Position numbers and translations under genes: made by a program
Part shown: piece by piece, positions 40,232-62,377 of the stretch
Layout of the letters: each line of letters opens with the position of its first letter
How positions within the stretch are numbered: position 1 is the first letter of the stretch
DNA from: a virus
DNA: 64,000 bases
Reading direction: 5' to 3' (one strand)
IMG/VR virus record: IMGVR_UViG_3300032893_000021
Location: 25,287-89,286 of that record
Notes under the pieces: generated by a model
Told to the model about the DNA's origin: nothing
Seen by the model: the letters and a program-made list of their open reading frames with translations, nothing else
Database searches by the model: none

Positions 40232-41277
40232 GGGCGCGCCCCCGCGGCGCCGTCTCTGGCCACCCCGAGCATGTCAAGGAGCGCGGCGGTGACGCTTTCG
40301 AGCATGTAACGGCGCTTCAGGGCCATCTCGTCGGGCGGCTCCACTGCCGCATCGGCCTCGTCGAGCGCGTCGAGGACCGCATCGGTGATGTACAGCGTCA
40401 GCGCGGCGCGCCCTGTGCCGCGCTTGACCGTGGGGCCCTTGCCGTTCTGCGCGATCCGCAGTCCACGCGCCGCCCTCATCGCCTGCGCGTGGCGGGTCAG
40501 CGTCCGGAGCACCGCGTCGGCCACGAGTTCGCGCCTCGCCTCATGATCAATCGCGGGCCTCCGCTCGCTCTCCAGCGGCGCGGGGGCGGACGCCTGCGCC
40601 TCGATCTGGAAGACGAGGTCGATGGGCTCGTTCGCCGTCCGCGGGATCTCGCGCCCCGTCAGCATGTCGTGCAGCCGCCGCCCGGCCTCGGTCAGCGGGT
40701 CGGGCCACTTCGCCGCAACTGTGGGGTCCAGCGGCGCGGCGGGGGCGGGCGTGTAGACCTGACCGTCCGGCGTGGTGACACGCGCGACAGGCGGCTCGTA
40801 CAGTCCGGCCCCCGGCGTCGGGCAGGGCGTCATGCCGGGTCCGATGCGCTGGCCGCAGTCCACGCACATGATGTCGTGGTCGAGCGGAGACGCCTCGGGC
40901 CGCAGCATCCCGTCGTCGTTGTAGTCGTCGAGGAACGGCGCGGGCTTGATGATGTCCGGCGCGTTGTGCTCCGTCATCGTGATGCCGAGCCTCGCCGACG
41001 ACTCTCGGACGGACGGGACCCGCTCCATCCGGTGACCCTCGCACCCGTCGCCCACCCAATGTTCGCGGTCCAGCGGCGCGGCGGGGGCGGCTGCGGCGTC
41101 GAGGACTCTGCTCGGCTCGGCAACCCTACGTGCGAGCAGGCCGCGGGCGAGGTCGTCGAGCGCCCGCTCGCTGATGACCGGCTCGCCGTGCGTCGCGGCG
41201 CCGACCAGTTCCAGCGCGTTCGCCCGGAGCGTCTCGCGGATGACCTCCCTCATCTCGTCAACGGGGTCGGGGGTCAT
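40228..41277 (-). CDS. hypothetical protein with Ala/Pro linkers
   Basis: 349 residues, ATG. N-terminal MREVIRETLRANALELVG helix; a CVDCGQRIGPGMTPC zinc-like pair near residue 140. Three APAAPLD-type linkers are encoded by near-identical DNA repeats (40571, 40727, 41069). The C-terminus is helical (TLYITDAVLDALDEADAAVE). The linkers suggest three modules strung together. Function unknown. Codon use is a little less GC-extreme than neighbours, a hint of later arrival. Confidence 0.55.
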   Translation of the reverse strand: MTPDPVDEMREVIRETLRANALELVGAATHGEPVISERALDDLARGLLARRVAEPSRVLDAAAAPAAPLDREHWVGDGCEGHRMERVPSVRESSARLGITMTEHNAPDIIKPAPFLDDYNDDGMLRPEASPLDHDIMCVDCGQRIGPGMTPCPTPGAGLYEPPVARVTTPDGQVYTPAPAAPLDPTVAAKWPDPLTEAGRRLHDMLTGREIPRTANEPIDLVFQIEAQASAPAPLESERRPAIDHEARRELVADAVLRTLTRHAQAMRAARGLRIAQNGKGPTVKRGTGRAALTLYITDAVLDALDEADAAVEPPDEMALKRRYMLESVTAALLDMLGVARDGAAGARP

Positions 41278-41467
41278 GTGGGCACCTCCAGCGCGGCGAG
41301 CCAGCGGAGCCGCTGCGCTCGTAGGGGTGGTTGACGTGATACTGCGGGTGCCGCGGGTTCGGGCAGCCCTGCTCGCTGTGGCACGACTCTGGGGAGGGGC
41401 AGCAGGCGCCCGGCGGCTGCGGCCTCGCGGGCGCCATGCGCGGAGACCCGTCCTTGCGGGCGCTCAT
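41258..41467 (-). CDS. Cys-rich small protein
   Basis: 69 residues; ATG directly after the previous stop. CCPSPESCHSEQGCPNPRHP gives four cysteines and two histidines, with a fifth cysteine later (WRCPH). It overlaps the start of the next gene by 20 bp. Compatible with a zinc-binding miniprotein; no family. Confidence 0.5.
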   Translation of the reverse strand: MSARKDGSPRMAPARPQPPGACCPSPESCHSEQGCPNPRHPQYHVNHPYERSGSAGSPRWRCPHDPRPR

Positions 41468-41773
41468 CTAGTCCCTCCCGAACCCGCGCGGCAGGTCCAC
41501 GCCCTCGACCTCGTCGAGGAGGGCCTCGATGTCGCCGAAGACGTCCACGTCCACGTCGTCCAGGCCGAGGTTGGTGACCTCCTCCAGCTTCTCCTCGGTG
41601 GCCGTGCCGCGCGCGACGTCGGCCAGGTTGTCGAGCCAGTCCTGGTACTCGGACTGGAGGTCCCTCAGGGTGTCGAACGCGGCCTCGATGTCGCTCCTGG
41701 CCGTGTCGATCGCCGAGCGCGCCTCGGCTGCGGCCGCCGCCCAGCGGTCCGGCCTGCTCAGTGTCCTCGCCAT
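41468..41773 (-). CDS. coiled-coil acidic protein, first gene of the second minus-strand operon
   Basis: 101 residues, ATG with AAGGAGG upstream, about 50 bases after the minus-strand -10. Residues 10-50 form a long amphipathic helix (AAAAAEARSAIDTARSDIEA ... LQSEYQDWLDNLADV). The C-terminal half is very acidic (LDDVDVDVFGDIEALLDEVE). It may be a DNA mimic or adaptor; no homologue recognised. Confidence 0.55.
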   Translation of the reverse strand: MARTLSRPDRWAAAAAEARSAIDTARSDIEAAFDTLRDLQSEYQDWLDNLADVARGTATEEKLEEVTNLGLDDVDVDVFGDIEALLDEVEGVDLPRGFGRD

Positions 41774-41821
41774 CTCGTCTGCCCTCCTTGGCGGCCCGGC
41801 CTCCCGGGCCCCGCTGGCGAC

Positions 41822-41883
41822 ACCATACCAGGTCGGCAGGACGTTGTAAAGCCCTTTACAATCCCCGGCATGACTGCTATGGT
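41822..41883. promoter_or_regulatory. second symmetric divergent promoter
   Basis: Plus strand: TTTACA 41855-41860, 17 bp, TATGGT 41878-41883. Minus strand: TTTACA (complement of 41845-41850), 17 bp, TATGGT (complement of 41822-41827). The -35 boxes form the palindrome TTGTAAAGCCCTTTACAA. Same geometry to the base pair as the promoter at 4690-4751. It drives the DUF932 gene rightwards and the Arr-like operon leftwards. Confidence 0.85.
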
Positions 41884-41929
41884 GGCCCCAGCGCCGGGGC
41901 GGACCCGGCAGCAAAGGAGGCTAGGGCTG

Positions 41930-43087
41930 ATGGGAGTCAAGAAGGTCAAGGAGGCGCTGCCCGCTGGCGCCACCCCGGAGACAAGGCCGGACCTGTTCGG
42001 GACGCGCGGCCAGTTCGCACGCGACCAGGACGGCGGGATGATCACGTTCGTCAACGACGCCGACAAGCCGGAGTACGCGACCCCCGAGGCGTCCGGCGTC
42101 GAGCGCGGGTTCTACGTCGCGGACCGCGGGCTGCCCTGGCACGTGGCTCTCTCTCGCACGCTCGGGACGCGCGAGCTGATGGAGGGGCGCGACTCCCTGC
42201 TGGGGGTCGACGAGGCCTGGGAGGCGCTGGGCGGCATCGAGATCGCCAAGGTCCCGGTCCTCACCCCGGACGGGGTCCCCGTCCCCGGCTGGGTCGCGAC
42301 CGTGGACGCCAAGACGGGCGCCCCCACGGGCGGCGTCGTCTCGCCGCGGTACAACGTGTTCCAGGAGCGGGACCTGATCCAGCTGGCAGTCGACCTGGTC
42401 GACGCGGGCGCGATCATCGAGACGGGCGCACACATGGCCGGGACCTCCAGGTTCTGGGTCAGCCTCGAGCTCCCCTCGCTGGAGGTCAGCGTCCCGGGCG
42501 ACGAGTCCGGCCTCCAGTCGTACCTGCTCCTCCGGAGCGGCCATGACGGCGGCATGAAGGCGCAGGCGTACATCACGCAGGTCCGCTCGGTCTGCGCGAA
42601 CACCGAGAACCTGGCGATCGACCGATCGAAGGCGGTCTGGATGCTCTCGCACCGCTCGCGGCTCGAGGGCCACATCGAGGAGGCGCGCCGCTCGCTCGGC
42701 ATCGCGTTCAAGCAGTCCCAGGAGGTCAAGGCGCTGACGACCATCCTCGCCCGCAAGCGGCTCGTCGACGACCAGGTCCGGGAGATCCTCGAGAAGGCCG
42801 TCTGGCCGGTCTCCGGCGACTCGGGCAAGGTCAGCCGCCACGCCGCCGCGGCGTACGAGGACTACCTCGAGAGCCCGACCCTGGACGGCATCCGGGGGAC
42901 GGCCTGGGGCGCGTACAACGCGGTCACGGAGTACCTCGACCACGTCCTCGATTACAAGGACGCGGCCCGGCGGACCGAGGGGCGCCGCCAGCCAGCCGAC
43001 GAGGTCAGGGCCGAGTACCTGATCGACGGCCGGGGGGCCGAGGTGAAGAACCGGGCGCTGCGCGCCCTGGTCACGGCTGCCAAGTAG
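41930..43087 (+). CDS. DUF932 / phage-plasmid LF812-like protein
   Basis: 385 residues. The ATG at 41930 has AAGGAGG nine bases upstream and lies 46 bases after the -10. GFYVADRGLPWHVALSRTLG, GWVATVDAKTGAPTGGVVS, SPRYNVFQERDL, HMAGTSRFWVSLEL, and ITQVRSVCANTENLAIDRS are the ordered motifs of the DUF932 family. It is common in phages and plasmids near replication/recombination genes and has no proven function. First gene of the early operon. Confidence 0.75.
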   Translation: MGVKKVKEALPAGATPETRPDLFGTRGQFARDQDGGMITFVNDADKPEYATPEASGVERGFYVADRGLPWHVALSRTLGTRELMEGRDSLLGVDEAWEALGGIEIAKVPVLTPDGVPVPGWVATVDAKTGAPTGGVVSPRYNVFQERDLIQLAVDLVDAGAIIETGAHMAGTSRFWVSLELPSLEVSVPGDESGLQSYLLLRSGHDGGMKAQAYITQVRSVCANTENLAIDRSKAVWMLSHRSRLEGHIEEARRSLGIAFKQSQEVKALTTILARKRLVDDQVREILEKAVWPVSGDSGKVSRHAAAAYEDYLESPTLDGIRGTAWGAYNAVTEYLDHVLDYKDAARRTEGRRQPADEVRAEYLIDGRGAEVKNRALRALVTAAK

Positions 43088-46470: not shown

Positions 46471-47502
46471 ATGGCACGACCGGAAGCGGGCGCCCCGCCC
46501 GTCAGGTCCTCGGCGGTCGCGACGCGGCCGAGGGACTCCCAGATCGAGACGTACAGGTCGATCGCCGACCTGATGAGGCGCCCGGACCGATGGGCGGACC
46601 TGGTCGCGATGACCGGCTCCGTCGAGGCCGCCGAGCGGTTCCTCTCGGTCGCGATGTCGTACATCGCGTCCGGCCGGGACCTCCTCGACTCGACGCCCGA
46701 GTCGCTCATCCAGGCGATCAAGGACGCCGCCGTCCTGGGCCTCGAGCCGACCGGCGTGGCGGGAGAGGCGGCCATCGTCACCTACGCCGGGGTGGCCCGC
46801 CTCCAGCCGATGTACCGGGGAATCCTCAAGCGGGTCCGCAACACCCAGCAGGTGGACTTCATCGACTGCCCGCCGCCGGTCATGGAGGCCGACGAGTTCG
46901 AGTACGGCTGGACCGAGCGCGGCTTCTGGTTCCGGCACAACCCGGACAAGCTCGACCTCGGGGCGGCCCCGGACGGGACGCCGCGCGGCCGGGGCGGATA
47001 CGTCAAGTTCTACGCCTACGCCGTGATGCCCTCGGGCTACGTCCACGGCGAGGTCATGGCCGACTCCGAGGTCCGCGAGGTCCGGGACCAGTACTCGAGG
47101 GCGTACCAGAGATGGCTCAGAGACCAGACGAAGGAGCCGCCGCCCTGGGTCAAGTCCTACGCCGAGATGGGACGCAAGACGGTCCTCCTCAGGATGGGCA
47201 AGCGGATGCCCCAGTCGGCGTTCGACCAGCGCCTGCTCGAGCTCGACGCGATGGCCGAGCGGGCAGCCGACGACGCGACGGCGACGGTCCGCAGGATCGA
47301 CGTGACGAGCGCCCGCCAGCGCGCCATCGAGGCGGCCCGCGGCCTCCCGGCCCCGGCCTCGAGGCAGCTCCCGGCCGGGGAGGCGGCCGCCGCCGAGGCC
47401 CAGGCAGCGCAGACGGAGGAGGAGATGCTCGCCGACGCTCGTGCCGCGACCGAGGTGGCGGCACGGCCCGACCAGGGGCAGGAGGAGCCGCTCGACTTCT
47501 AG
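46471..47502 (+). CDS. recT: RecT-family ssDNA annealing protein
   Basis: 343 residues, ATG two bases after the exonuclease gene. RFLSVAMSYIASGRDLLDST, SLIQAIKDAAVLGLEPTGVA, EAAIVTYAGVARLQPMYRG, GYVKFYAYAVMPSGYVHGE, and PPPWVKSYAEMGRKTVLLRM are the ordered RecT motifs. Alanine-rich tail. With the YqaJ exonuclease it makes a complete two-gene recombinase for replication restart and genome circularisation. Confidence 0.9.
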   Translation: MARPEAGAPPVRSSAVATRPRDSQIETYRSIADLMRRPDRWADLVAMTGSVEAAERFLSVAMSYIASGRDLLDSTPESLIQAIKDAAVLGLEPTGVAGEAAIVTYAGVARLQPMYRGILKRVRNTQQVDFIDCPPPVMEADEFEYGWTERGFWFRHNPDKLDLGAAPDGTPRGRGGYVKFYAYAVMPSGYVHGEVMADSEVREVRDQYSRAYQRWLRDQTKEPPPWVKSYAEMGRKTVLLRMGKRMPQSAFDQRLLELDAMAERAADDATATVRRIDVTSARQRAIEAARGLPAPASRQLPAGEAAAAEAQAAQTEEEMLADARAATEVAARPDQGQEEPLDF

Positions 47503-47669
47503 CGCGACCGCCGCGCGCCCGCGCCGCCCGGGTGGTAGGATGGGCGGACCGCCTGCGCCGTCCCCGCGAGGGACGCCCCCGGCGGCGCGTGGAAACGGGC
47601 GCGATAGCGGGTCCGGTGCTGACACCGCCGGGCCCGCACCGTCTCCGCCCCTTGTGTCAGGAGGGAACG
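47503..47669 (+). other. structured gap before the primase gene
   Basis: No ORF with support. It contains a -10-like TAGGAT near 47535 and several stable hairpins: CGTCCC-CGCGA-GGGACG, and a stem beginning GCGGGTCCGG. A strong CAGGAGGG ribosome site is at the end. Likely the 5' leader of the primase operon, possibly with an attenuating or regulatory RNA fold. Confidence 0.4.
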
Positions 47670-47714
47670 ATGGACCACTCGACCCCAGGCGCCACGTCAG
47701 GGCGCGTCCCGTGA
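47670..47714 (+). CDS. 14-codon leader ORF before primase
   Basis: ATG with CAGGAGGG upstream, reading MDHSTPGATSGRVP, stop overlapping the GTG of the primase (GTGA). The primase GTG itself has no good ribosome site, so translation of the primase is probably coupled to this leader. Confidence 0.5.
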   Translation: MDHSTPGATSGRVP

Positions 47715-48646
47715 GCCAGTACGACCCCGTGGAGGTGGCCACGGTCTACATCGCCATGTTCGCCGCCCGCCTCGACGACCACGCCTTCTGGCGCCCCACG
47801 CCGGACGGCGAGGCGGAGGGCCACTGGGAGCGGGCCCGGCGCCCGCTGACGCCCGAGGCGGCGCTCGGCGGCCTGCGCGGGGACAAGCCCGTCTCGTCCT
47901 ACATGGAGGACGCCGTCGGGGCGACCCACGTCGGAGCCGTGGACTTCGACACCGAGGACGGCTACGCGCGGGGCCTCGAGGTCGCTGGCGTGATGGCGCG
48001 CGCCGGGGCGTACCCGATGCTCGAGAGGTCGAGGCGCGGCTGCCATCTCTGGGTCGTCATCGACGACCAGGTGCCGGGGCAGGCCATGCGGCTCGCGCTG
48101 CGCTGGTGGACCGGTCAGGCGAACGCCCACTGGGCCCGTGACCCGAAGGTCGAGATCCTCCCGAAGCGGCTCGAGCAGCGCGGCCCGGACACGGTCGGCA
48201 GCCCGCTCCGCATGCCGATGATGCCGCACCCGGTGGCAGGGCGCCGCTGGCCCCTCCTGAGGGCCGACGGGACGCGCCTCGGCGAGTCCGTCTCGGCGAC
48301 CCTCCTCGCGGTCGACCAGACACCGGCCGGTCTCGTGCGCGAGGCCGCCGAGCGGGCCCCGCTGCCGCCGGACGAGTGCAGGATTCCCGCCTGGGCCAGG
48401 CCGGTGGCCCGCGAGCCCGGCGACTGCGTCCAGGTCCTCGAGGCCGCCGGGGTGGCCCGCGCGGTCCCGGGACGCGGCTGCCGATGCCCGCTCCACGACG
48501 ACCGGGTCGCGTCCCTCTCGATCGCCCGGGACGGCGAGCGCGTCTGGTGCAAGTCGCCGTCCTGCGTCGCCTACAACAACGGCCGCGGCCTGGGGGCCGA
48601 CCAGCTCGCCCGGGCGCTGGGCGAGCTGGCGGCGGCACCGGCATGA
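47711..48646 (+). CDS. AEP-type DNA primase with CHC2-like zinc finger
   Basis: 311 residues, GTG start. VGAVDFDTEDG (DxD at 78-80), MLERSRRGCHLWVVI (107-117), and EILPKRLEQRGPDTVGSPLR are the catalytic motifs of archaeo-eukaryotic-primase-like phage primases. The C-terminal CRCPLHDDRVASLSIARDG ... CKSPSC is a CHC2-like zinc finger as in DnaG, a mixed architecture known from mobile elements. Probably makes primers together with the RepA-like helicase four genes on. Confidence 0.75.
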   Translation: MSQYDPVEVATVYIAMFAARLDDHAFWRPTPDGEAEGHWERARRPLTPEAALGGLRGDKPVSSYMEDAVGATHVGAVDFDTEDGYARGLEVAGVMARAGAYPMLERSRRGCHLWVVIDDQVPGQAMRLALRWWTGQANAHWARDPKVEILPKRLEQRGPDTVGSPLRMPMMPHPVAGRRWPLLRADGTRLGESVSATLLAVDQTPAGLVREAAERAPLPPDECRIPAWARPVAREPGDCVQVLEAAGVARAVPGRGCRCPLHDDRVASLSIARDGERVWCKSPSCVAYNNGRGLGADQLARALGELAAAPA

Positions 48647-49617
48647 CCACCACGACGCTGGCGGCCGCCAACCCGGTCATCGCCTCGTCGGTCGCGTTCC
48701 GCGACATGCGGCGCGCGGACCTCGAGCGGCACTACGCCGCCGTCCCCTGGACGACGCCGCGGTTCTACCAGAGCCCGACGGTCCTGGCTGGCGGCGGCTC
48801 GCAGTACAGGGCGGCGTTCGTCGAGGGCTGCCTCGCGATCCTCAAGTGGAAGCAGTTCTACTCCCAGCTCGTGGCGTACGCCTTCCTCCCGCCCATGTCA
48901 CCGACCGGCGACGCCGCAGACGAGAGGCGGGCCCTCGCCGAGCTCCGGGCCCGCGGGTTCGGCGTCATGCTCACGGCCGAGGACGGGCGGCGCCTGGACG
49001 TGCCCGCGTCCGACCTCGAGCCGGTCCCGTGGAACACCGAGTACATCTACCGGGCGTCCCATCTGGCGAGGCTCGAGGGCGGCGACTGGGCGAAGCTCAG
49101 GACGTACCGCAACCGGGCCCACCGGGACGGCTACCGCTGCGAGGACTCGCCCGCGGCCTCCACCGGCAACGAGGACATCCTCCGCCTGACGAAGGACTGG
49201 GTGGCGTACCGCCGCAAGGGCGGCGCGATGACGGGCTACATCAGGGCCCTCGGCTGGTGGCCCGCGACGCGCGTCTTCCGGATGTACGACCGCGACGGGG
49301 GCCTGGCCGCGTTCTCCTACACCGAGGACCTCGGCCCGGCGGGCACCGTCATCACCGGGCGCCTCCGCGACTACGCGCGGACCCTCATCCACGACCCGAT
49401 GCAGCTGATCGCCCACCACGAGGCCCTATGGGAGCTCGAGAACCGCGGCGACCGGCTGATGAACCTGGGGGCGGCGGACCCCGTCGGGGGCCCCGGCCTC
49501 CGCTACCACAAGATCGCCCTCAACCCGGTGTCCACCCAGCAGATATACCGCCTCGCGGCGACCGGCGACCCCGGCGCGGAGCCCGGGGCCGGAGAGGAGC
49601 AGATGGCGCTATGGTGA
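48643..49617 (+). CDS. DUF2156-like GNAT-fold acyl/aminoacyl transferase
   Basis: 324 residues, ATGA overlap. IYRASHLARLEGGDWAKLRT followed by YRNRAHR (about 135-160) and MNLGAADPVGGPGLRYHK (about 273-290) match the phosphatidylglycerol-lysyltransferase C-terminal family (GNAT fold). Members move acyl or aminoacyl groups from CoA or tRNA to an amine or hydroxyl. Inside a phage replication operon a nucleobase is a more likely acceptor than a lipid (inference). Coupled to the Cys-cluster and PLP genes. Confidence 0.55.
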   Translation: MTTTTLAAANPVIASSVAFRDMRRADLERHYAAVPWTTPRFYQSPTVLAGGGSQYRAAFVEGCLAILKWKQFYSQLVAYAFLPPMSPTGDAADERRALAELRARGFGVMLTAEDGRRLDVPASDLEPVPWNTEYIYRASHLARLEGGDWAKLRTYRNRAHRDGYRCEDSPAASTGNEDILRLTKDWVAYRRKGGAMTGYIRALGWWPATRVFRMYDRDGGLAAFSYTEDLGPAGTVITGRLRDYARTLIHDPMQLIAHHEALWELENRGDRLMNLGAADPVGGPGLRYHKIALNPVSTQQIYRLAATGDPGAEPGAGEEQMALW

Positions 49618-50150
49618 CGGTCAGGGTGTCCGGCGCCCAGTTGCGGCAGCGGTTCGACGGCTGCCAGCCGGACTTCGTGGCGAACGTCTGCCACGGCATG
49701 TGCTGCTGCCCGACCAAGGGACCGGCGATGCCGGTCATCGTCGTGGCGCGGATCGGGGCCGGGACCTGGAGGCGGACGCCGGGGGAGGACGACATCCGCA
49801 TCACGCGGGACGCCTTGTGCCCGCACTTCGTCGACTACCGGTGCGGCCTCCACGGCGACCCCGAGAAGCCGATGGGCTGCCTCGTCGCCCCGTTCTACAT
49901 CAGCGAGCACGGCCTCCTCGGGGTGCGCAACAGGTACAGGCGGTTCCCGTGCTTCAACGGCGGCGCTCGCCTGCCCGCCTACGTCGCCTTCAGGTCCGGG
50001 CTCGACAGCATCTTCGGGCGCGAGGCGGCCCAGGGGGTCGCCGACGCCGCTGAGGCCGGGGTGGGTATCTTCACGGCCGAGATTCCCGACGGGGCCTACG
50101 CCGCCCTGAAGGAGGTCCAGAGGATCGAGAGTTCCCCGTGGGTCAGATGA
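49611..50150 (+). CDS. Cys-cluster protein (YkgJ-like)
   Basis: 179 residues. ATG at 49611 overlaps the previous stop by seven bases. VCHGMCCCPTKG holds C27 and C31-33; further cysteines sit in LCPHF, YRCGLHGD, GCLVAPFY and RFPCFNGG. The pattern, a CxxxCCC cluster then C-P-x-F...C-G-L-H...G-C, resembles the YkgJ-type Zn/Fe-Cys-cluster family, presumed to hold a metal or Fe-S centre. Middle gene of the GNAT/Cys/PLP cassette; it could be an oxidoreductase or maturation partner. Confidence 0.6.
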   Translation: MVTVRVSGAQLRQRFDGCQPDFVANVCHGMCCCPTKGPAMPVIVVARIGAGTWRRTPGEDDIRITRDALCPHFVDYRCGLHGDPEKPMGCLVAPFYISEHGLLGVRNRYRRFPCFNGGARLPAYVAFRSGLDSIFGREAAQGVADAAEAGVGIFTAEIPDGAYAALKEVQRIESSPWVR

Positions 50151-51064
50151 CGATGTCGCTCGAGTCGCCGGGCCGCGGGCCCTGGGTCTGCGAGCGCTGC
50201 GGGAAGTCCGTCCCCGCCGGTCCGGTCGTCCCGAGCCGCGCCGACAAGGGCCTCGCGCACGGCCAGTGCTACGCCTGCGACGACGCCACGCGCTGGCGCC
50301 GGGCCGAGCCGCTGACGCCGGTCGAGCAGTACGGCGAGTTCTACGTGAAGCGCGACGACGCCTACGAGCGCGCGGGCGTCCGGGGCGGCAAGGTCAGGAC
50401 CTGCTGGCGGCTCGCCCAGGGCGCGGTCGGGCTCGTCACGGCCGGGAGCAGGAGCAGCCCGCAAGTCAACATCGTCGCCCACATCGCCCGGGAGCTCGGA
50501 GTCCCCTGCAGGGTCCATACCCCGCAGGGCGAGCTGTCCCCCGAGGTCGCGGACGCGGCCGCCTGCGGCGCCGAGGTCGTCCAGCACCCGGCCGGGTACA
50601 ACAGCGTCATCACGGCGCGGGCCCGGGACGACGCGGCGTCCCTCGGCTGGACCCTGATCCCGTTCGGGATGGAATGCGAGGAGGCGGTCCGGGCGACGGC
50701 GTCCCAGGCCGACCTGCCGCCCGGCGTCCGTCGGGTGATCGTCCCGGTCGGGAGCGGCATGACGCTGGCGGGCATCCTGACCGGGCTGGCGCGCCATGCC
50801 AGCAGGACGCCGGTGGTGGGGGTCTCGGTCGGGGCCGACCCGACGGCCCGGCTCCAGCGCTGGGCGCCCGACTACCCCGGGCTCGAGATCGTCCCGCCCT
50901 CGTCCGACTACCACGCCCCGGCGCCGTCGCGCGTCTCGATCGGGGGCGCCGACCTCGTCCTCGACCCGCACTACGAGGCCAAGGCGGCCGCCTGGCTCGG
51001 GCCGCGCCTGGAACCGGGCGACCTCCTATGGGTGGTCGGCATCCGGAGGACGGCCGAGGGATGA
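50147..51064 (+). CDS. PLP-dependent fold-type-II enzyme (ACC-deaminase/D-Cys-desulfhydrase-like) with zinc ribbon
   Basis: 305 residues, ATGA overlap. Residues 15-44 form a zinc ribbon (C15, C18, C41, C44) not usual in this family. FYVKRDDAYERAGVRGGKVR places K82 as the Schiff-base lysine; LVTAGSRSSPQVNIVA and VPVGSGMTLAGILTG are the cofactor-phosphate loops. Relatives deaminate ACC or remove sulfide from D-cysteine. The N before the lysine (GGNK in relatives) is replaced. In this setting it may supply or rearrange an amino acid group attached to DNA or a nucleotide (inference). Confidence 0.7.
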   Translation: MTMSLESPGRGPWVCERCGKSVPAGPVVPSRADKGLAHGQCYACDDATRWRRAEPLTPVEQYGEFYVKRDDAYERAGVRGGKVRTCWRLAQGAVGLVTAGSRSSPQVNIVAHIARELGVPCRVHTPQGELSPEVADAAACGAEVVQHPAGYNSVITARARDDAASLGWTLIPFGMECEEAVRATASQADLPPGVRRVIVPVGSGMTLAGILTGLARHASRTPVVGVSVGADPTARLQRWAPDYPGLEIVPPSSDYHAPAPSRVSIGGADLVLDPHYEAKAAAWLGPRLEPGDLLWVVGIRRTAEG

Positions 51065-52467
51065 CGGACAAGCCAGCGATCCCCGAGGGGCTCTCCGAGT
51101 CGCCGTTCGGGCTGCGCTACCACGTCCCCGAGGTCAGGGTCCTCGTCGAGATCATCGACCTCCGCCGGAAGTCGGGCGAGCTATGGGGCGAGATGACCGT
51201 CCGCTGCAACCTCGAGGGCGTCCGGGCCCAGCTCGACGGCAACCGCCTCAGGCAGGGGAACTTCAACTTCTCGTCCGTCTCGACCCGCAAGATATGGGCC
51301 AACGCCCTCGACGACATGACGGGCGAGGCCTTCCGCAAGACGGGCTGGCAGTGGGCCAACCTGATGGAGCGCATCTGCCAGTCCGTCCTCGACCACGAGC
51401 GCGAGGGGACCGTCCGCGGCGGGTTCATCACCGGCGAGAGGATCGCGGCCGGTGGGCGGCCCTGGGCGGCGTTCCCGATCGTTCCCCACGGCGAGATGGC
51501 CACGCTCTTCTCGCGCGGCGGGTCGGGGAAGACGCAGCTGGCGTACTGCCTGGCCTTCGGCATGGCACTCGGCAGGTCCGTCATCGAGGGGGTGCGGGTC
51601 GACCGCCCGTACCGGGTGGCCATCCTCGACTGGGAGACGAGCAAGGAGACGGCAGACGACATCTGGGGCATCATCTCCGAGACCACCGGGATCCGCGTCC
51701 CGGAGGGCATCTGGTACGAGCCGATGGACACGCCGCTCGAGCGCGGGCTCCCCAAGATCGCGACGGTCCTCGAGCGCTCCCGGGCGAACCTGGTCATCGT
51801 CGACTCGGTCGAGATGGCCCTGCTGTCCTCGTCCGAGGGGGCCGGGGACCCGGCCGACTCGATCACCCGCGTCTACCAGAGCCTCCGGCGGCTGGGGACC
51901 TGGGGCCTGATGATCGACCACGTGACGGGGGGCGACCTCAGGTCCCGGAAGGTCGCCCTCAAGGCGTACGGCAGCATCTTCCGGATGAACCTCGCCCGCC
52001 ACGCGATCGCGCTGCACGTCGGCCAGCGGTCGGGGGACACCTCCGAGGCGTACCTCGTCTGCGTCAAGTCGAACCTCTACCGCGACCGCTGGGCTATGCC
52101 GGGGACGCTCCTGCGGTCCGACGACGAGCTCTCGTGGTCCTTCGGCGACGCCGACTACGGCCTCTACGACCGCCTCCTGTCGTCCGGCGACACGACCGCC
52201 TCCGACGCCCCCGTCGGGGAGGGTGCGTACCAGGGTACGATGAGCGCCGGTGACAGGTTCCTCCGCGTCCTGCTCGACGCCGGTCCGGCCGGTCTGACCA
52301 TCGCCGGGATCTCAGAGCAGGCGCGCTACAAGTCGACGGCGTACATCCGCAAGGTCATGAATTCGTACGAGGGCATGGGGCTGGTCAGGGCCTACGACGG
52401 GCCAGGGCCGACCAGGGAGAAGCTCTGGACGCTGACGCCGGACGGCGTCTCGGCGATCGGCGAGTGA
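51061..52467 (+). CDS. RepA-like hexameric helicase (AAA_25)
   Basis: 468 residues, ATGA overlap. FSRGGSGKTQLAYCLAFGMA is Walker A (about 151-158). VAILDWETSKETADDIW follows, LVIVDSVEMALLS is Walker B (about 244), and GLMIDHVTGGDLRSRK is the sensor region. This order is typical of RepA/RecA-like replicative helicases of plasmids and phages. The C-terminal 70 residues form a winged helix (GLTIAGISEQARYKSTAYIR). It lies just upstream of the iteron region, as origin-linked helicases often do. Confidence 0.8.
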   Translation: MTDKPAIPEGLSESPFGLRYHVPEVRVLVEIIDLRRKSGELWGEMTVRCNLEGVRAQLDGNRLRQGNFNFSSVSTRKIWANALDDMTGEAFRKTGWQWANLMERICQSVLDHEREGTVRGGFITGERIAAGGRPWAAFPIVPHGEMATLFSRGGSGKTQLAYCLAFGMALGRSVIEGVRVDRPYRVAILDWETSKETADDIWGIISETTGIRVPEGIWYEPMDTPLERGLPKIATVLERSRANLVIVDSVEMALLSSSEGAGDPADSITRVYQSLRRLGTWGLMIDHVTGGDLRSRKVALKAYGSIFRMNLARHAIALHVGQRSGDTSEAYLVCVKSNLYRDRWAMPGTLLRSDDELSWSFGDADYGLYDRLLSSGDTTASDAPVGEGAYQGTMSAGDRFLRVLLDAGPAGLTIAGISEQARYKSTAYIRKVMNSYEGMGLVRAYDGPGPTREKLWTLTPDGVSAIGE

Positions 52468-52792: not shown

Positions 52793-54106
52793 ATGCCTGA
52801 CGAGTTCGACCCCCGGATGGGGATGGAGAAGGCCGAGGGCTTCGGGGTCGCCCGCAACCAGATCAGGGACCTCAACTACATGGCGAAGCGGGAGGCCGCC
52901 AGGCGGGCCGAGGAGGGCGCCGCCGCGAAGGCCGTGTTCGGCGAGCCGGAGACGTTCACCAGCCGGGCCGGGGCGATCGTCACCAGGTACGCCGCGCCGC
53001 CCTTCTCGGTCCTCGACACACGGCAGGGCTACTGGCAGGAGAGGCGCCGCAAGTGGCTCGCCCTCGGGATCAAGTCGGAGCTCGGCCGGGGCGAGGCCGG
53101 TGCCCTGAAGATCAGCAAGGCGGTGTCCGACACGGCCGGGCTCGACATCCACCCGTCGATGGCGCCCGGCTCGGCCCGGGCGTTCGGCGTCGACCTGATG
53201 AGGGGCGAGACGGACGGGCGGGACGCGGGCTACAACTACGCGGCCCACAAGCGCCGGGCGCCCGGGACCGGGGCGATCCCCATGACCGGGCTGGCGGGCG
53301 ACTGGAACAAGGACATGCGGGCCGGGCCCGAGGCCGACCCTACGATGCCGATGGACGGCGCGGACGAGGTGGAGGGCCCGTCGGCGCCGGGGACCAGCAT
53401 CTTCGACCCGGTCCTCTGCGAGCTCGCCTACCGCTGGTGGTGCCCGCCCGGCGGGGCTGTCCTCGACCCGTTCGCGGGCGGCTCGGTCCGCGGCGTGGTG
53501 GCCGCGATGCTGGGCCACCCGTACACGGGGATCGACCTGTCCCGGGCCCAGGTCGAGGCCAACCGCGAGCAGGCGGCCCAGATCGTCCCGCCCGGGCTGC
53601 CGATGCCGACCTGGATCGTGGGGGACAGCCACCTCGTCCTCGAGTCGCTCGGGGAGGACGAGTACGACGCGGTGTTCACGTGCCCGCCGTACTACGACCT
53701 CGAGGTCTACTCGGACGACCCGGCCGACCTCTCCAACCTCCCGACGTACGGCGGGTTCGCGGTCCGGTACCGGGAGATCCTCGAGAAGGCGGCGGCCCGC
53801 CTCCGGACCGGCCGGTTCGCGACCGTCGTCGTCTCCGAGGTCCGCGACAAGACGGGCGCCTACGTGGGGCTCGTCCCGGACACCATCCGGGCCCTCCAGC
53901 TCGCCGGGCTCAGGTACTACAACGAGGCTGTCCTCGTCAACGTGGCCGGGTCGCTGCCGCTGAGGGTCCAGGGCCAGTTCGAGGCCGGGCGCAAGCTCGG
54001 CCGGATGCACCAGAACGTCATCTCGGCCGTCAAGGGGGACGCCCCGCGCGGCTGGGACCACGCACGGGAGGAGCCGCCCGACCCGCAGATGGGCCTGGGG
54101 CTGTAG
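52793..54106 (+). CDS. DNA methyltransferase (N6-adenine/N4-cytosine type)
   Basis: 437 residues. ATG at 52793 with GGGAGAG upstream; earlier in-frame starts lie in the iteron region. PPFSVLDTRQGYWQERRRKW (about 68-87) is a phage DNA-methylase signature. LDPFAGGS (224-231) is motif I, TGIDLS motif II, and TCPPYYDLEVYS (about 296) a CPPY version of the catalytic DPPY. Motif order I then IV fits the gamma/alpha class. It may protect phage DNA or take part in base modification together with the cassette upstream. Confidence 0.75.
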   Translation: MPDEFDPRMGMEKAEGFGVARNQIRDLNYMAKREAARRAEEGAAAKAVFGEPETFTSRAGAIVTRYAAPPFSVLDTRQGYWQERRRKWLALGIKSELGRGEAGALKISKAVSDTAGLDIHPSMAPGSARAFGVDLMRGETDGRDAGYNYAAHKRRAPGTGAIPMTGLAGDWNKDMRAGPEADPTMPMDGADEVEGPSAPGTSIFDPVLCELAYRWWCPPGGAVLDPFAGGSVRGVVAAMLGHPYTGIDLSRAQVEANREQAAQIVPPGLPMPTWIVGDSHLVLESLGEDEYDAVFTCPPYYDLEVYSDDPADLSNLPTYGGFAVRYREILEKAAARLRTGRFATVVVSEVRDKTGAYVGLVPDTIRALQLAGLRYYNEAVLVNVAGSLPLRVQGQFEAGRKLGRMHQNVISAVKGDAPRGWDHAREEPPDPQMGLGL

Positions 54107-61620: not shown

Positions 61621-61970
61621 GCGAGCCGACGTTCGATGCGGACGGATACCCGACGGAGGCGACGCTCCGGGCGGTCCGGCGCTGGCCGGTCAAGACGCCC
61701 GACGACTGCACGGCGCTGCTCGCGTACGTCGGCCGGGCGTGGCACTGGCCCGACATGTTCCAGGCCGCCCCGAGGCTGAGCCGCCCGTTCCGCGGGTCGC
61801 GCACGCTGGAGCGCCGCTACCGGCTCGTGACCGGCGGCTGGTCGGGGAACGAGTCGCTGGTCGCGGCCCTGGACGGGAACCGGATGTTCACGATGCTCTG
61901 CTGGCGGGAGTCGCACCGGGGCGGCCTGCACGTCTACGCGGTCCCGGAGCGGATCGAGGAGCCGAGGTGA
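61617..61970 (+). CDS. small hypothetical protein
   Basis: 117 residues, GTG. EATLRAVRRWPVKTPDDCTA, LLAYVGRAWHWPDMF, then YRLVTGGWSGNESLVAALDG and MLCWRESHRGGLHVYAVPER. From memory the TGGWSGNE...L..N..F....W..S.RGG.H pattern is frequent in phage proteins of unknown role. Confidence 0.55.
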   Translation: MSEPTFDADGYPTEATLRAVRRWPVKTPDDCTALLAYVGRAWHWPDMFQAAPRLSRPFRGSRTLERRYRLVTGGWSGNESLVAALDGNRMFTMLCWRESHRGGLHVYAVPERIEEPR

Positions 61971-62377
61971 AGGCGCTGACCCTGACCCAGCCGTGGGCGT
62001 CGCTCGTGGTCCTCGGCGTCAAGCGCGTCGAGACTCGCTCGTGGCGGCCCCGCATCATCGCGGAGACGCGCATCGCGGTCCACGCAGCGAAGGGCTGGAC
62101 GGCGTACGACCGGGAGCTGGCGGCCGACCTGCACCTGCGCGGCGTCCTCCCGGTCCCCCCCGACTCCCTCCCACGCGGCGCCGTGATCGGGGAGGTCACG
62201 GTGACCGGGTGCCAACCGACCCAGGAGGCAGTCTGGAAGCTCGCGGCGCTGGAGTTCGAACTCGGCGACTACTCCTCGTTGCGCTGGGCGTGGCACCTCC
62301 GCGACCCGGCCGCCTACCCGGAGCCGGTCCCGGCCCGCGGGTCCCTCGGGCTCTGGGAGTGGGAGCCCGCTCCGTGA
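61967..62377 (+). CDS. ASCH-domain protein
   Basis: 136 residues, GTG. KALTLTQPWASLVVLGVKRV, ETRSWRPR, IAVHAAKGW and PRGAVIGEVTVTGCQPT, with a closing GSLGLWEWE, follow the ASCH fold (PUA-like). ASCH proteins bind RNA or modified nucleotides; a nuclease or reader role is possible. It may act on modified nucleic acid in this phage (inference). Confidence 0.78.
   Translation: MKALTLTQPWASLVVLGVKRVETRSWRPRIIAETRIAVHAAKGWTAYDRELAADLHLRGVLPVPPDSLPRGAVIGEVTVTGCQPTQEAVWKLAALEFELGDYSSLRWAWHLRDPAAYPEPVPARGSLGLWEWEPAP

What the first reader, a model, noticed from the sequence alone, without database searches (positions are those of the whole stretch)
48643..51064. GNAT-fold + Cys-cluster + zinc-ribbon PLP enzyme cassette inside the replication operon
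Three overlapping genes between primase and helicase encode a DUF2156-like transferase, a YkgJ-like Cys-cluster (possible metal or Fe-S) protein, and a fold-type-II PLP enzyme fused to a zinc ribbon. None is needed for replication itself. Known phage DNA hypermodification pathways use PLP enzymes, Fe-S enzymes and GNAT transferases to build amino-acid-derived groups on bases, and Mom is a GNAT protein that modifies adenine. The zinc ribbon could dock the PLP enzyme on DNA. No thymidine-hydroxymethylating enzyme is visible, so an adenine- or cytosine-linked, or tRNA/nucleotide-linked, modification is more likely. The DNA methyltransferase at 52793 and the ASCH protein at 61967 could be maker and reader partners.
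Basis: partly seen in the sequence, partly recalled or inferred. Interest (0 to 1): 0.85.

Follow-up and report, generated by a model that had tools for sequence, protein, structure and literature searches.

The report
Phage DNA hypermodification enzyme cassette
A phage operon carries a vitamin-B6-type enzyme, a cysteine-rich protein and an unusual DNA methyltransferase that are repeatedly fused to one another in other phages, so they probably work together to put an unusual, perhaps amino-acid-like, group on phage DNA bases.

Summary
The three overlapping genes are real. The recurring unit, however, is not the triplet. It is the methyltransferase (MTase) at 52793-54106 plus the PLP enzyme plus the Cys protein. 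In 18 related loci the PLP domain is inserted at one fixed point inside the MTase fold; in others it lies next to it. Homologues of the Cys protein are fused to, inserted in or overlapping the same MTase in eight other loci. The GNAT gene has no partner of its Pfam family in 83 other MTase or PLP-enzyme records.

The MTase family shows a cofactor-pocket signature. Motif I reads DPFAGGSVRG (Arg) except in one clade that reads D-x-F-A-G-D-[ST]-V-F. That clade carries an S-adenosylmethionine decarboxylase gene directly downstream in 32 of 33 non-redundant members, and never a PLP gene. The PLP gene occurs only with the Arg type: 24 of 80 viral loci, and 23 of about 78 bacterial loci in a second sample.

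I infer that the Arg type uses SAM, probably as donor of the 3-amino-3-carboxypropyl chain, to modify a base amine. The PLP enzyme (D-cysteine desulfhydrase/ACC-deaminase fold) would then tailor the resulting amino acid. The functional link is strong; the chemistry is inferred, not shown.

The parts
48643..49617 (+). GNAT-fold transferase, LPG_synthase_C (PF09924) type; probably window-specific tailoring enzyme
   Evidence: Pfam 7e-12; no phage or genome relative by tblastn or peptide patterns; no PF09924 match in 83 related records
49614..50150 (+). Cys-rich protein (Cys 17, 26, 30, 31, 32, 69, 77, 89, 113), putative metal or Fe-S protein, accessory of the MTase
   Evidence: 33.5% identity over 173 aa to a protein overlapping the L058 MTase, E 6e-26; family fused to MTases in L007, L008, L010, L032, L146, L226, L288
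50147..51064 (+). Zinc ribbon (CERC 50189-50200, CYAC 50267-50278) plus fold-type-II PLP enzyme of the D-cysteine desulfhydrase / ACC deaminase type; Schiff-base Lys at 50390-50392
   Evidence: Pfam PALP 6.6e-16; alignment of 27 relatives; Foldseek best hits D-cysteine desulfhydrase and ACC deaminase on the model of a fused relative; start by ATGA overlap
52793..54106 (+). DNA amino-MTase-like enzyme of the ParB-MTase family, here without a detectable ParB domain; motif I DPFAGGSVRG at 53465-53494 (Arg codon 53489-53491), motif IV CPPY at 53681-53692; PLP insertion point of relatives at about 53573-53600
   Evidence: phrog_12517 3.7e-94, phrog_498 1.4e-66; alignment A1; ParB profile finds nothing in the window; coordinates
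53489..53491 (+). Codon of the family-diagnostic motif-I Arg (residue 233 of the MTase), replaced by Phe (once Met) in the branch that carries an AdoMet decarboxylase
61967..62377 (+). ASCH-domain protein, possible partner
   Evidence: PF04266 3.1e-5; relatives near 13 other family MTases
47441..48646 (+). AEP-type primase, upstream neighbour overlapping the cassette (context)
   Evidence: AEP-TOTE 1.5e-5, just under its cut-off; ATGA overlap
51061..52467 (+). AAA_25 helicase, downstream neighbour overlapping the cassette (context)
   Evidence: AAA_25 9.3e-10; ATGA overlap

Best explanation
The cassette is part of a phage DNA hypermodification system centred on the MTase at 52793-54106. Inferred mechanism: (1) The MTase binds SAM in a motif-I loop carrying an Arg that would hold the carboxylate of SAM, and transfers a SAM-derived group, probably the 3-amino-3-carboxypropyl chain, to the exocyclic amine of adenine or cytosine in phage DNA. 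(2) The PLP enzyme, which in relatives sits inside the same polypeptide next to the SAM site, forms an aldimine with the alpha-amino acid now on the base and converts it (deamination, elimination or racemisation). (3) The Cys protein is an accessory metal protein of the MTase. (4) The GNAT may acylate or aminoacylate the new amine in this phage only. Shown here: operon structure, family membership, fusions and insertion, residue/partner covariation. Inferred: the substrate, the transferred group, the order of steps, and that DNA is the target.
For: PALP inserted at one point of the MTase (profile positions 70-73) in 18 loci, between the helix after beta2 and beta3 of the Rossmann fold; PALP adjacent in most other PALP loci. 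The Cys domain is fused or overlapping in five different arrangements. In a different branch of the same MTase, AdoMet decarboxylase lies directly downstream: 77 of 83 loci, 32 of 33 non-redundant, none next to an Arg/Lys-type MTase; the motif-I loop switches from GG-S-V-R to GD-[ST]-V-F. The AdoMetDC keeps the Ser, His and Cys aligned with T. maritima AdoMetDC, and one passes the NCBIfam equivalog cut-off. PALP co-occurs with the Arg type only: 24/80 vs 0/80 loci, Fisher 1.6e-8. The second, bacterial-genome sample agrees: all classifiable family MTases are Arg type, none with AdoMetDC, 23 with PALP. A PLP enzyme needs an alpha-amino acid, which an aminocarboxypropyl product supplies and an aminopropyl product does not.
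Against: No chemistry was tested. The AdoMetDC branch is one clade, so the residue swap is a single event and could be phylogenetic drift. About two thirds of Arg-type MTases have no PLP partner, also not elsewhere in 50 records, so plain methylation by those is possible. Phage AdoMetDC homologues can be ornithine or arginine decarboxylases (PMC9992855, PMC10407285). Fold-type-II enzymes acting on a base-linked amino acid have no precedent known to me. The best Foldseek hits of the window MTase model are RNA and other MTases at low TM-score, with pLDDT 66, so DNA as target rests on sequence similarity. In the window the PLP and MTase genes are separate.
Confidence: 0.45

Rival explanations
1. 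The MTase methylates DNA (N6-adenine or N4-cytosine) in the ordinary way, and the PLP enzyme acts on something else, for example it makes an amino-acid-derived donor from a free amino acid that another partner adds to DNA.
For: Nearest solved relatives are N4-C and N6-A MTases; most Arg-type members have no PLP partner; motif IV is a PPY motif.
Against: Motif I has an Arg where the solved DNA MTases in the same alignments have the GTT/GSGTT type; AdoMetDC next to a plain methyltransferase would make no sense; PALP is embedded within the MTase fold at a fixed point.
Confidence: 0.25
2. The PLP enzyme works on SAM itself, making a modified SAM that the MTase then uses, in the way CmoA makes carboxy-SAM for CmoX and, by inference, AdoMetDC makes dcSAM in the other branch.
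For: Parallel with AdoMetDC pairing and with CmoA/CmoX (PMC12783734); PALP lies beside the SAM-binding half of the MTase; ACC deaminase/D-Cys desulfhydrase fold.
Against: PALP-bearing and PALP-less Arg-type MTases share the same motif I, so they probably use the same cofactor.
Confidence: 0.15
3. One reading: the GNAT, Cys and PLP genes form a triplet pathway of their own, with a Mom-like GNAT as the base modifier.
For: Translational coupling of the three genes.
Against: Triplet found nowhere else; no LPG_synthase_C protein in 83 related records; PALP and Cys are fused to the MTase instead.
Confidence: 0.07
4. The cassette modifies tRNA or small molecules, or is metabolic cargo unrelated to DNA.
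For: Structural hits of the MTase model include tRNA and rRNA MTases; GNAT family members elsewhere act on lipids (established knowledge).
Against: Sequence relatives with solved structures are mostly DNA MTases; many relatives carry a ParB domain and sit next to terminase genes.
Confidence: 0.08

Closest known systems
CmoA / CmoX / CmoY system of Synechococcus phage S-B43 (PMC12783734)
   Same: Phage DNA MTase-type enzyme that uses a SAM analogue made by a phage partner gene, then further tailoring with an amino acid; Arg in the cofactor pocket for a carboxylate; ParBc proteins in the neighbourhood.
   Different: CmoX is a cytosine-C5 enzyme with an SPPC motif; here the motifs are DPFAGGSVRG and CPPY of the amino-MTase type; no CmoA gene was recognised; the partners are a PLP enzyme or AdoMetDC.
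Thymidine hypermodification pathways (5-hmdU based, with PLP and GNAT enzymes; from memory)
   Same: Multi-step base tailoring that uses PLP-dependent and GNAT enzymes.
   Different: Those start from 5-hydroxymethyluridine; here an MTase-fold enzyme is the core and no thymidine-hydroxymethylating enzyme was recognised.
Mom of phage Mu (from memory)
   Same: GNAT fold and base modification.
   Different: The window GNAT matches LPG_synthase_C, not Mom, and is not a conserved member of the system.
D-cysteine desulfhydrase / ACC deaminase family
   Same: Closest fold and sequence of the PLP domain; conserved GGK, SPQ, GSGM[TS] and YEAK motifs.
   Different: All NCBIfam scores far below equivalog cut-offs; inserted in or linked to a DNA MTase.
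TYW2 and other aminocarboxypropyl transferases of RNA (from memory)
   Same: Rossmann MTase fold that may move the 3-amino-3-carboxypropyl chain of SAM.
   Different: RNA substrates; no sequence relation shown here.

Membership tests
ParB-MTase family of phages (phrog_12517 / phrog_498) | MTase core with DPFAGGSVRG and CPPYxDLE motifs | tested here: met
ParB-MTase family of phages (phrog_12517 / phrog_498) | N-terminal ParB-like domain | tested here: not met
   ParB profile finds nothing in the window or its record; core family membership stands, the domain is absent here
D-cysteine desulfhydrase / ACC deaminase (fold-type-II PLP) | PALP fold with Schiff-base Lys | tested here: met
D-cysteine desulfhydrase / ACC deaminase (fold-type-II PLP) | Score above the curated equivalog cut-offs | tested here: not met
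   best 31.6 bits against cut-offs of about 266 or more; filed only as same fold, not as that enzyme
LPG_synthase_C (PF09924) GNAT family | Score above Pfam cut-off | tested here: met
   45.4 vs 27.5 bits
YkgJ / CxxCxxCC family (PF03692) | Pfam match | tested here: not met
   no family for P0002; DUF3109 below cut-off for two fused relatives
AdoMet decarboxylase of the sister branch | Catalytic Ser, His and Cys and the conserved Pro of SpeD | tested here: met
   aligned with T. maritima AdoMetDC; residues named in PMC10407285; position of the diagnostic Pro is my reading
AdoMet decarboxylase of the sister branch | Acts on SAM rather than ornithine or arginine | not testable with these tools
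   homologues with other substrates exist
CmoX (5-carboxymethylcytosine) | SPPC motif and CmoA partner | tested here: not met
   motif is CPPY; no CmoA-like cluster stood out among neighbours of 203 family loci; no CmoA profile was run
Mom (Mu) | Match to the Mom family | tested here: not met
   only LPG_synthase_C in Pfam, nothing in NCBIfam or PHROGs
Known DNA hypermodification system | Modified nucleoside in virion DNA | not testable with these tools
   needs LC-MS

The most novel reading that the evidence does not exclude
A widespread phage and prophage enzyme family has turned a DNA amino-methyltransferase into a side-chain transferase. It adds an amino acid (3-amino-3-carboxypropyl, from SAM) or, in a sister branch with its own AdoMet decarboxylase, an aminopropyl group to DNA bases. 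A PLP enzyme built into or linked to the same protein then remodels the DNA-borne amino acid. This would be, as far as I know, the first alpha-amino acid taken directly from SAM onto DNA and the first PLP enzyme embedded in a DNA modification enzyme.
Probability: 0.4. Interest if true: 0.9.

Novelty: new variant of a known kind. Interest (0 to 1): 0.72.

Why it matters
If right, it adds a new chemical route to phage DNA modification: donation of the SAM side chain itself, parallel to the 2025 carboxy-SAM route. It would explain why hundreds of phages and prophages carry this MTase, paired in many of them with either an AdoMet decarboxylase or a PLP enzyme. Cultured carriers exist (Pseudanabaena phage Pam4, Erythrobacter phages R6L and ZS04, Mycobacterium phage Vincenzo, Croceibacter phage P2559S, Pseudomonas phage ZRG1), so one LC-MS run per phage would decide it.

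Tried and rejected
GNAT relatives: tblastn against phages at E 1e-5 and 10, peptide scans of viral and genome contigs, and PF09924 in 83 related records gave nothing useful, so the triplet as a conserved unit was rejected.

A scan with a two-sequence Cys alignment returned only the L058 contig again.

Direct comparison of the window Cys protein with the fused Cys domains was borderline (E 0.01-0.03); L058 supplied the bridge.

A joint alignment with Cys fragments was misaligned and discarded.

PADLOC gave only generic MTase matches, not a defence system.

Literature searches for aminopropyl or aminocarboxypropyl DNA, PLP plus ParB, and related terms found no description of this system. The 2013 survey of base-modification systems by Iyer and colleagues is not in the library, so earlier mention there cannot be excluded.

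AdoMetDC exceptions: 6 loci of the Asp/Phe type lack it; 5 of the 6 were inspected and show terminase-type genes next.
Full report
OBSERVATION. The window is bases 25287-89286 of an 89,286-base virus record. The PLP gene therefore most likely starts at 50147. Gene A is a GNAT of the LPG_synthase_C family (E 7e-12), gene C a PALP-family PLP enzyme (6.6e-16); gene B matches no Pfam or NCBIfam model. The zinc ribbon at the start of gene C is two CxxC knuckles, CERC and CYAC. About 1.7 kb downstream lies an MTase (start ATG 52793) of phrog_12517/phrog_498.

THE PLP ENZYME BELONGS TO THE MTASE. A scan of viral contigs with the PLP protein gave 31 loci. Comparing the window's MTase with the same loci showed that many carry both in one reading frame, with the PLP domain inserted into the MTase domain. 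Profile coordinates place the insertion at one point (MTase profile positions 70-73) in 18 loci, including Pseudanabaena phage Pam4 and Erythrobacter phages R6L and ZS04. A structure model of such a fusion (L012, mean pLDDT 73) puts the PLP fold between the helix after strand 2 and strand 3 of the Rossmann MTase fold. In most other PALP loci, such as Mycobacterium phage Vincenzo, the PLP gene is adjacent. In the window the two are separated by the helicase gene. The PLP fold is nearest to D-cysteine desulfhydrase and ACC deaminase; the Schiff-base lysine is invariant in 51 members, so it is probably an active enzyme.

THE CYS PROTEIN BELONGS TO THE MTASE TOO. A Cys-rich domain is fused between MTase and PLP domains (L008, L010, L032), inserted together with the PLP domain (L007), at the MTase C-terminus (L146, L288), at its N-terminus (L226), or encoded by a gene overlapping the MTase gene (L058). 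The window protein is directly homologous to the L058 protein (33.5% over 173 aa, E 6e-26) and joins the rest by iteration. It occurs with PLP-bearing, PLP-less and decarboxylase-type MTases, so it is an accessory of the MTase.

THE GNAT IS NOT A CONSERVED MEMBER. No LPG_synthase_C protein was found in 83 other MTase- or PLP-bearing records, and the protein itself found no relative. Many of those records are fragments, so rare association is not excluded. Its place in the cassette rests on translational coupling alone.

A COFACTOR-POCKET SIGNATURE. In phage records, two MTases of the family (Croceibacter phage P2559S, Pseudomonas phage ZRG1) have an AdoMet decarboxylase gene immediately downstream, and their motif I reads D-x-F-A-G-D-T-V-F instead of DPFAGGSVR. 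Two further scans extended this. Among classified MTases of all loci held, 77 of 83 Asp-type members have the decarboxylase next to them and no Arg/Lys-type member does. Three loci hold one MTase of each type, and there the decarboxylase is next to the Asp/Phe type. After removing near-duplicates it is 32 of 33 against 0 of 92; the one Arg-type locus listed as carrying the gene (L179) is one of these mixed loci. The Asp/Phe branch is a single clade (support 0.955), so this is one evolutionary switch, not many. Gly-to-Asp and Arg-to-Phe (once Met) in the motif-I loop are among the few fully discriminating columns. Losing a positive and gaining a negative charge is what a pocket would need to exchange SAM for decarboxylated SAM. 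The solved DNA MTases aligned to the family do not have this Arg.

THE PLP ENZYME GOES ONLY WITH THE ARG TYPE. In the MTase-selected viral samples, PALP is in 24 of 80 Arg-type loci and 0 of 80 Asp/Phe-type loci (Fisher 1.6e-8). In a sample of 80 loci from bacterial genomes, all classifiable family MTases are Arg type, none has the decarboxylase, and 23 have PALP. Fifty PALP-less viral records have none elsewhere, so PALP is optional.

MECHANISM. The simplest account of both partners is that the enzyme family moves the carbon side chain of its cofactor: aminopropyl from decarboxylated SAM in one branch, 3-amino-3-carboxypropyl from SAM in the other. Only the second product is an alpha-amino acid and thus a substrate for a PLP enzyme, which would explain why the PLP partner is confined to that branch. 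The motif order and CPPY motif point to an exocyclic amine of adenine or cytosine. The GNAT could then acylate the new amine. Shown: gene structure, homology, fusions, covariation. Inferred: cofactor, product, order of steps, DNA as target. Ordinary methylation by the Arg type remains possible (rival 1), as does action of the PLP enzyme on SAM itself (rival 2).

COMPARISON. The nearest published idea is CmoA/CmoX/CmoY, in which a SAM analogue made by a phage enzyme is used by a phage cytosine-C5 enzyme and then joined to glycine (PMC12783734). That paper notes ParBc proteins near CmoX genes and their frequent fusion to DNA MTases, with unknown role there. The polyamine survey of viral AdoMetDC homologues does not mention MTases in the text held and warns that some homologues decarboxylate ornithine or arginine. 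No paper in the library describes the present system; the 2013 survey of base-modification gene systems was not available.

VERDICT. Observation confirmed; interpretation partly supported; the real unit is MTase + PLP enzyme + Cys protein, with a testable prediction of a new base modification.

Noticed in passing
61967-62377: ASCH-domain protein whose relatives lie within about 4 kb of eight Arg-type MTases and directly upstream of five decarboxylase-type MTases, including Croceibacter phage P2559S; possible reader or eraser of the modification. Background rate not measured.
   Followed up: partly
L179, L181, L182: Phage contigs with two family MTases, one Arg type and one Asp/Phe type with AdoMet decarboxylase, suggesting two different modifications in one phage.
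   Followed up: partly
L148, L153, L156, L205, L207: Asp/Phe-type MTases without a neighbouring AdoMet decarboxylase; terminase-type genes follow instead. They may rely on host decarboxylated SAM.
   Followed up: partly
L016 and L048: MTases with motif I DPFGGEAVKG or DPFGGEQTKG: Lys in place of the Arg with an added Glu, possibly a third cofactor type; L016 has a PLP gene beside it.
   Followed up: no
L049:4866-5594: Staphylococcus phage Alsa_1 encodes a small PALP protein in its replication region about 1 kb from a more distant DNA methyltransferase.
   Followed up: no
41174-43087: DUF932 protein (Pfam 1.3e-38) upstream of the recombination genes; not examined.
   Followed up: no
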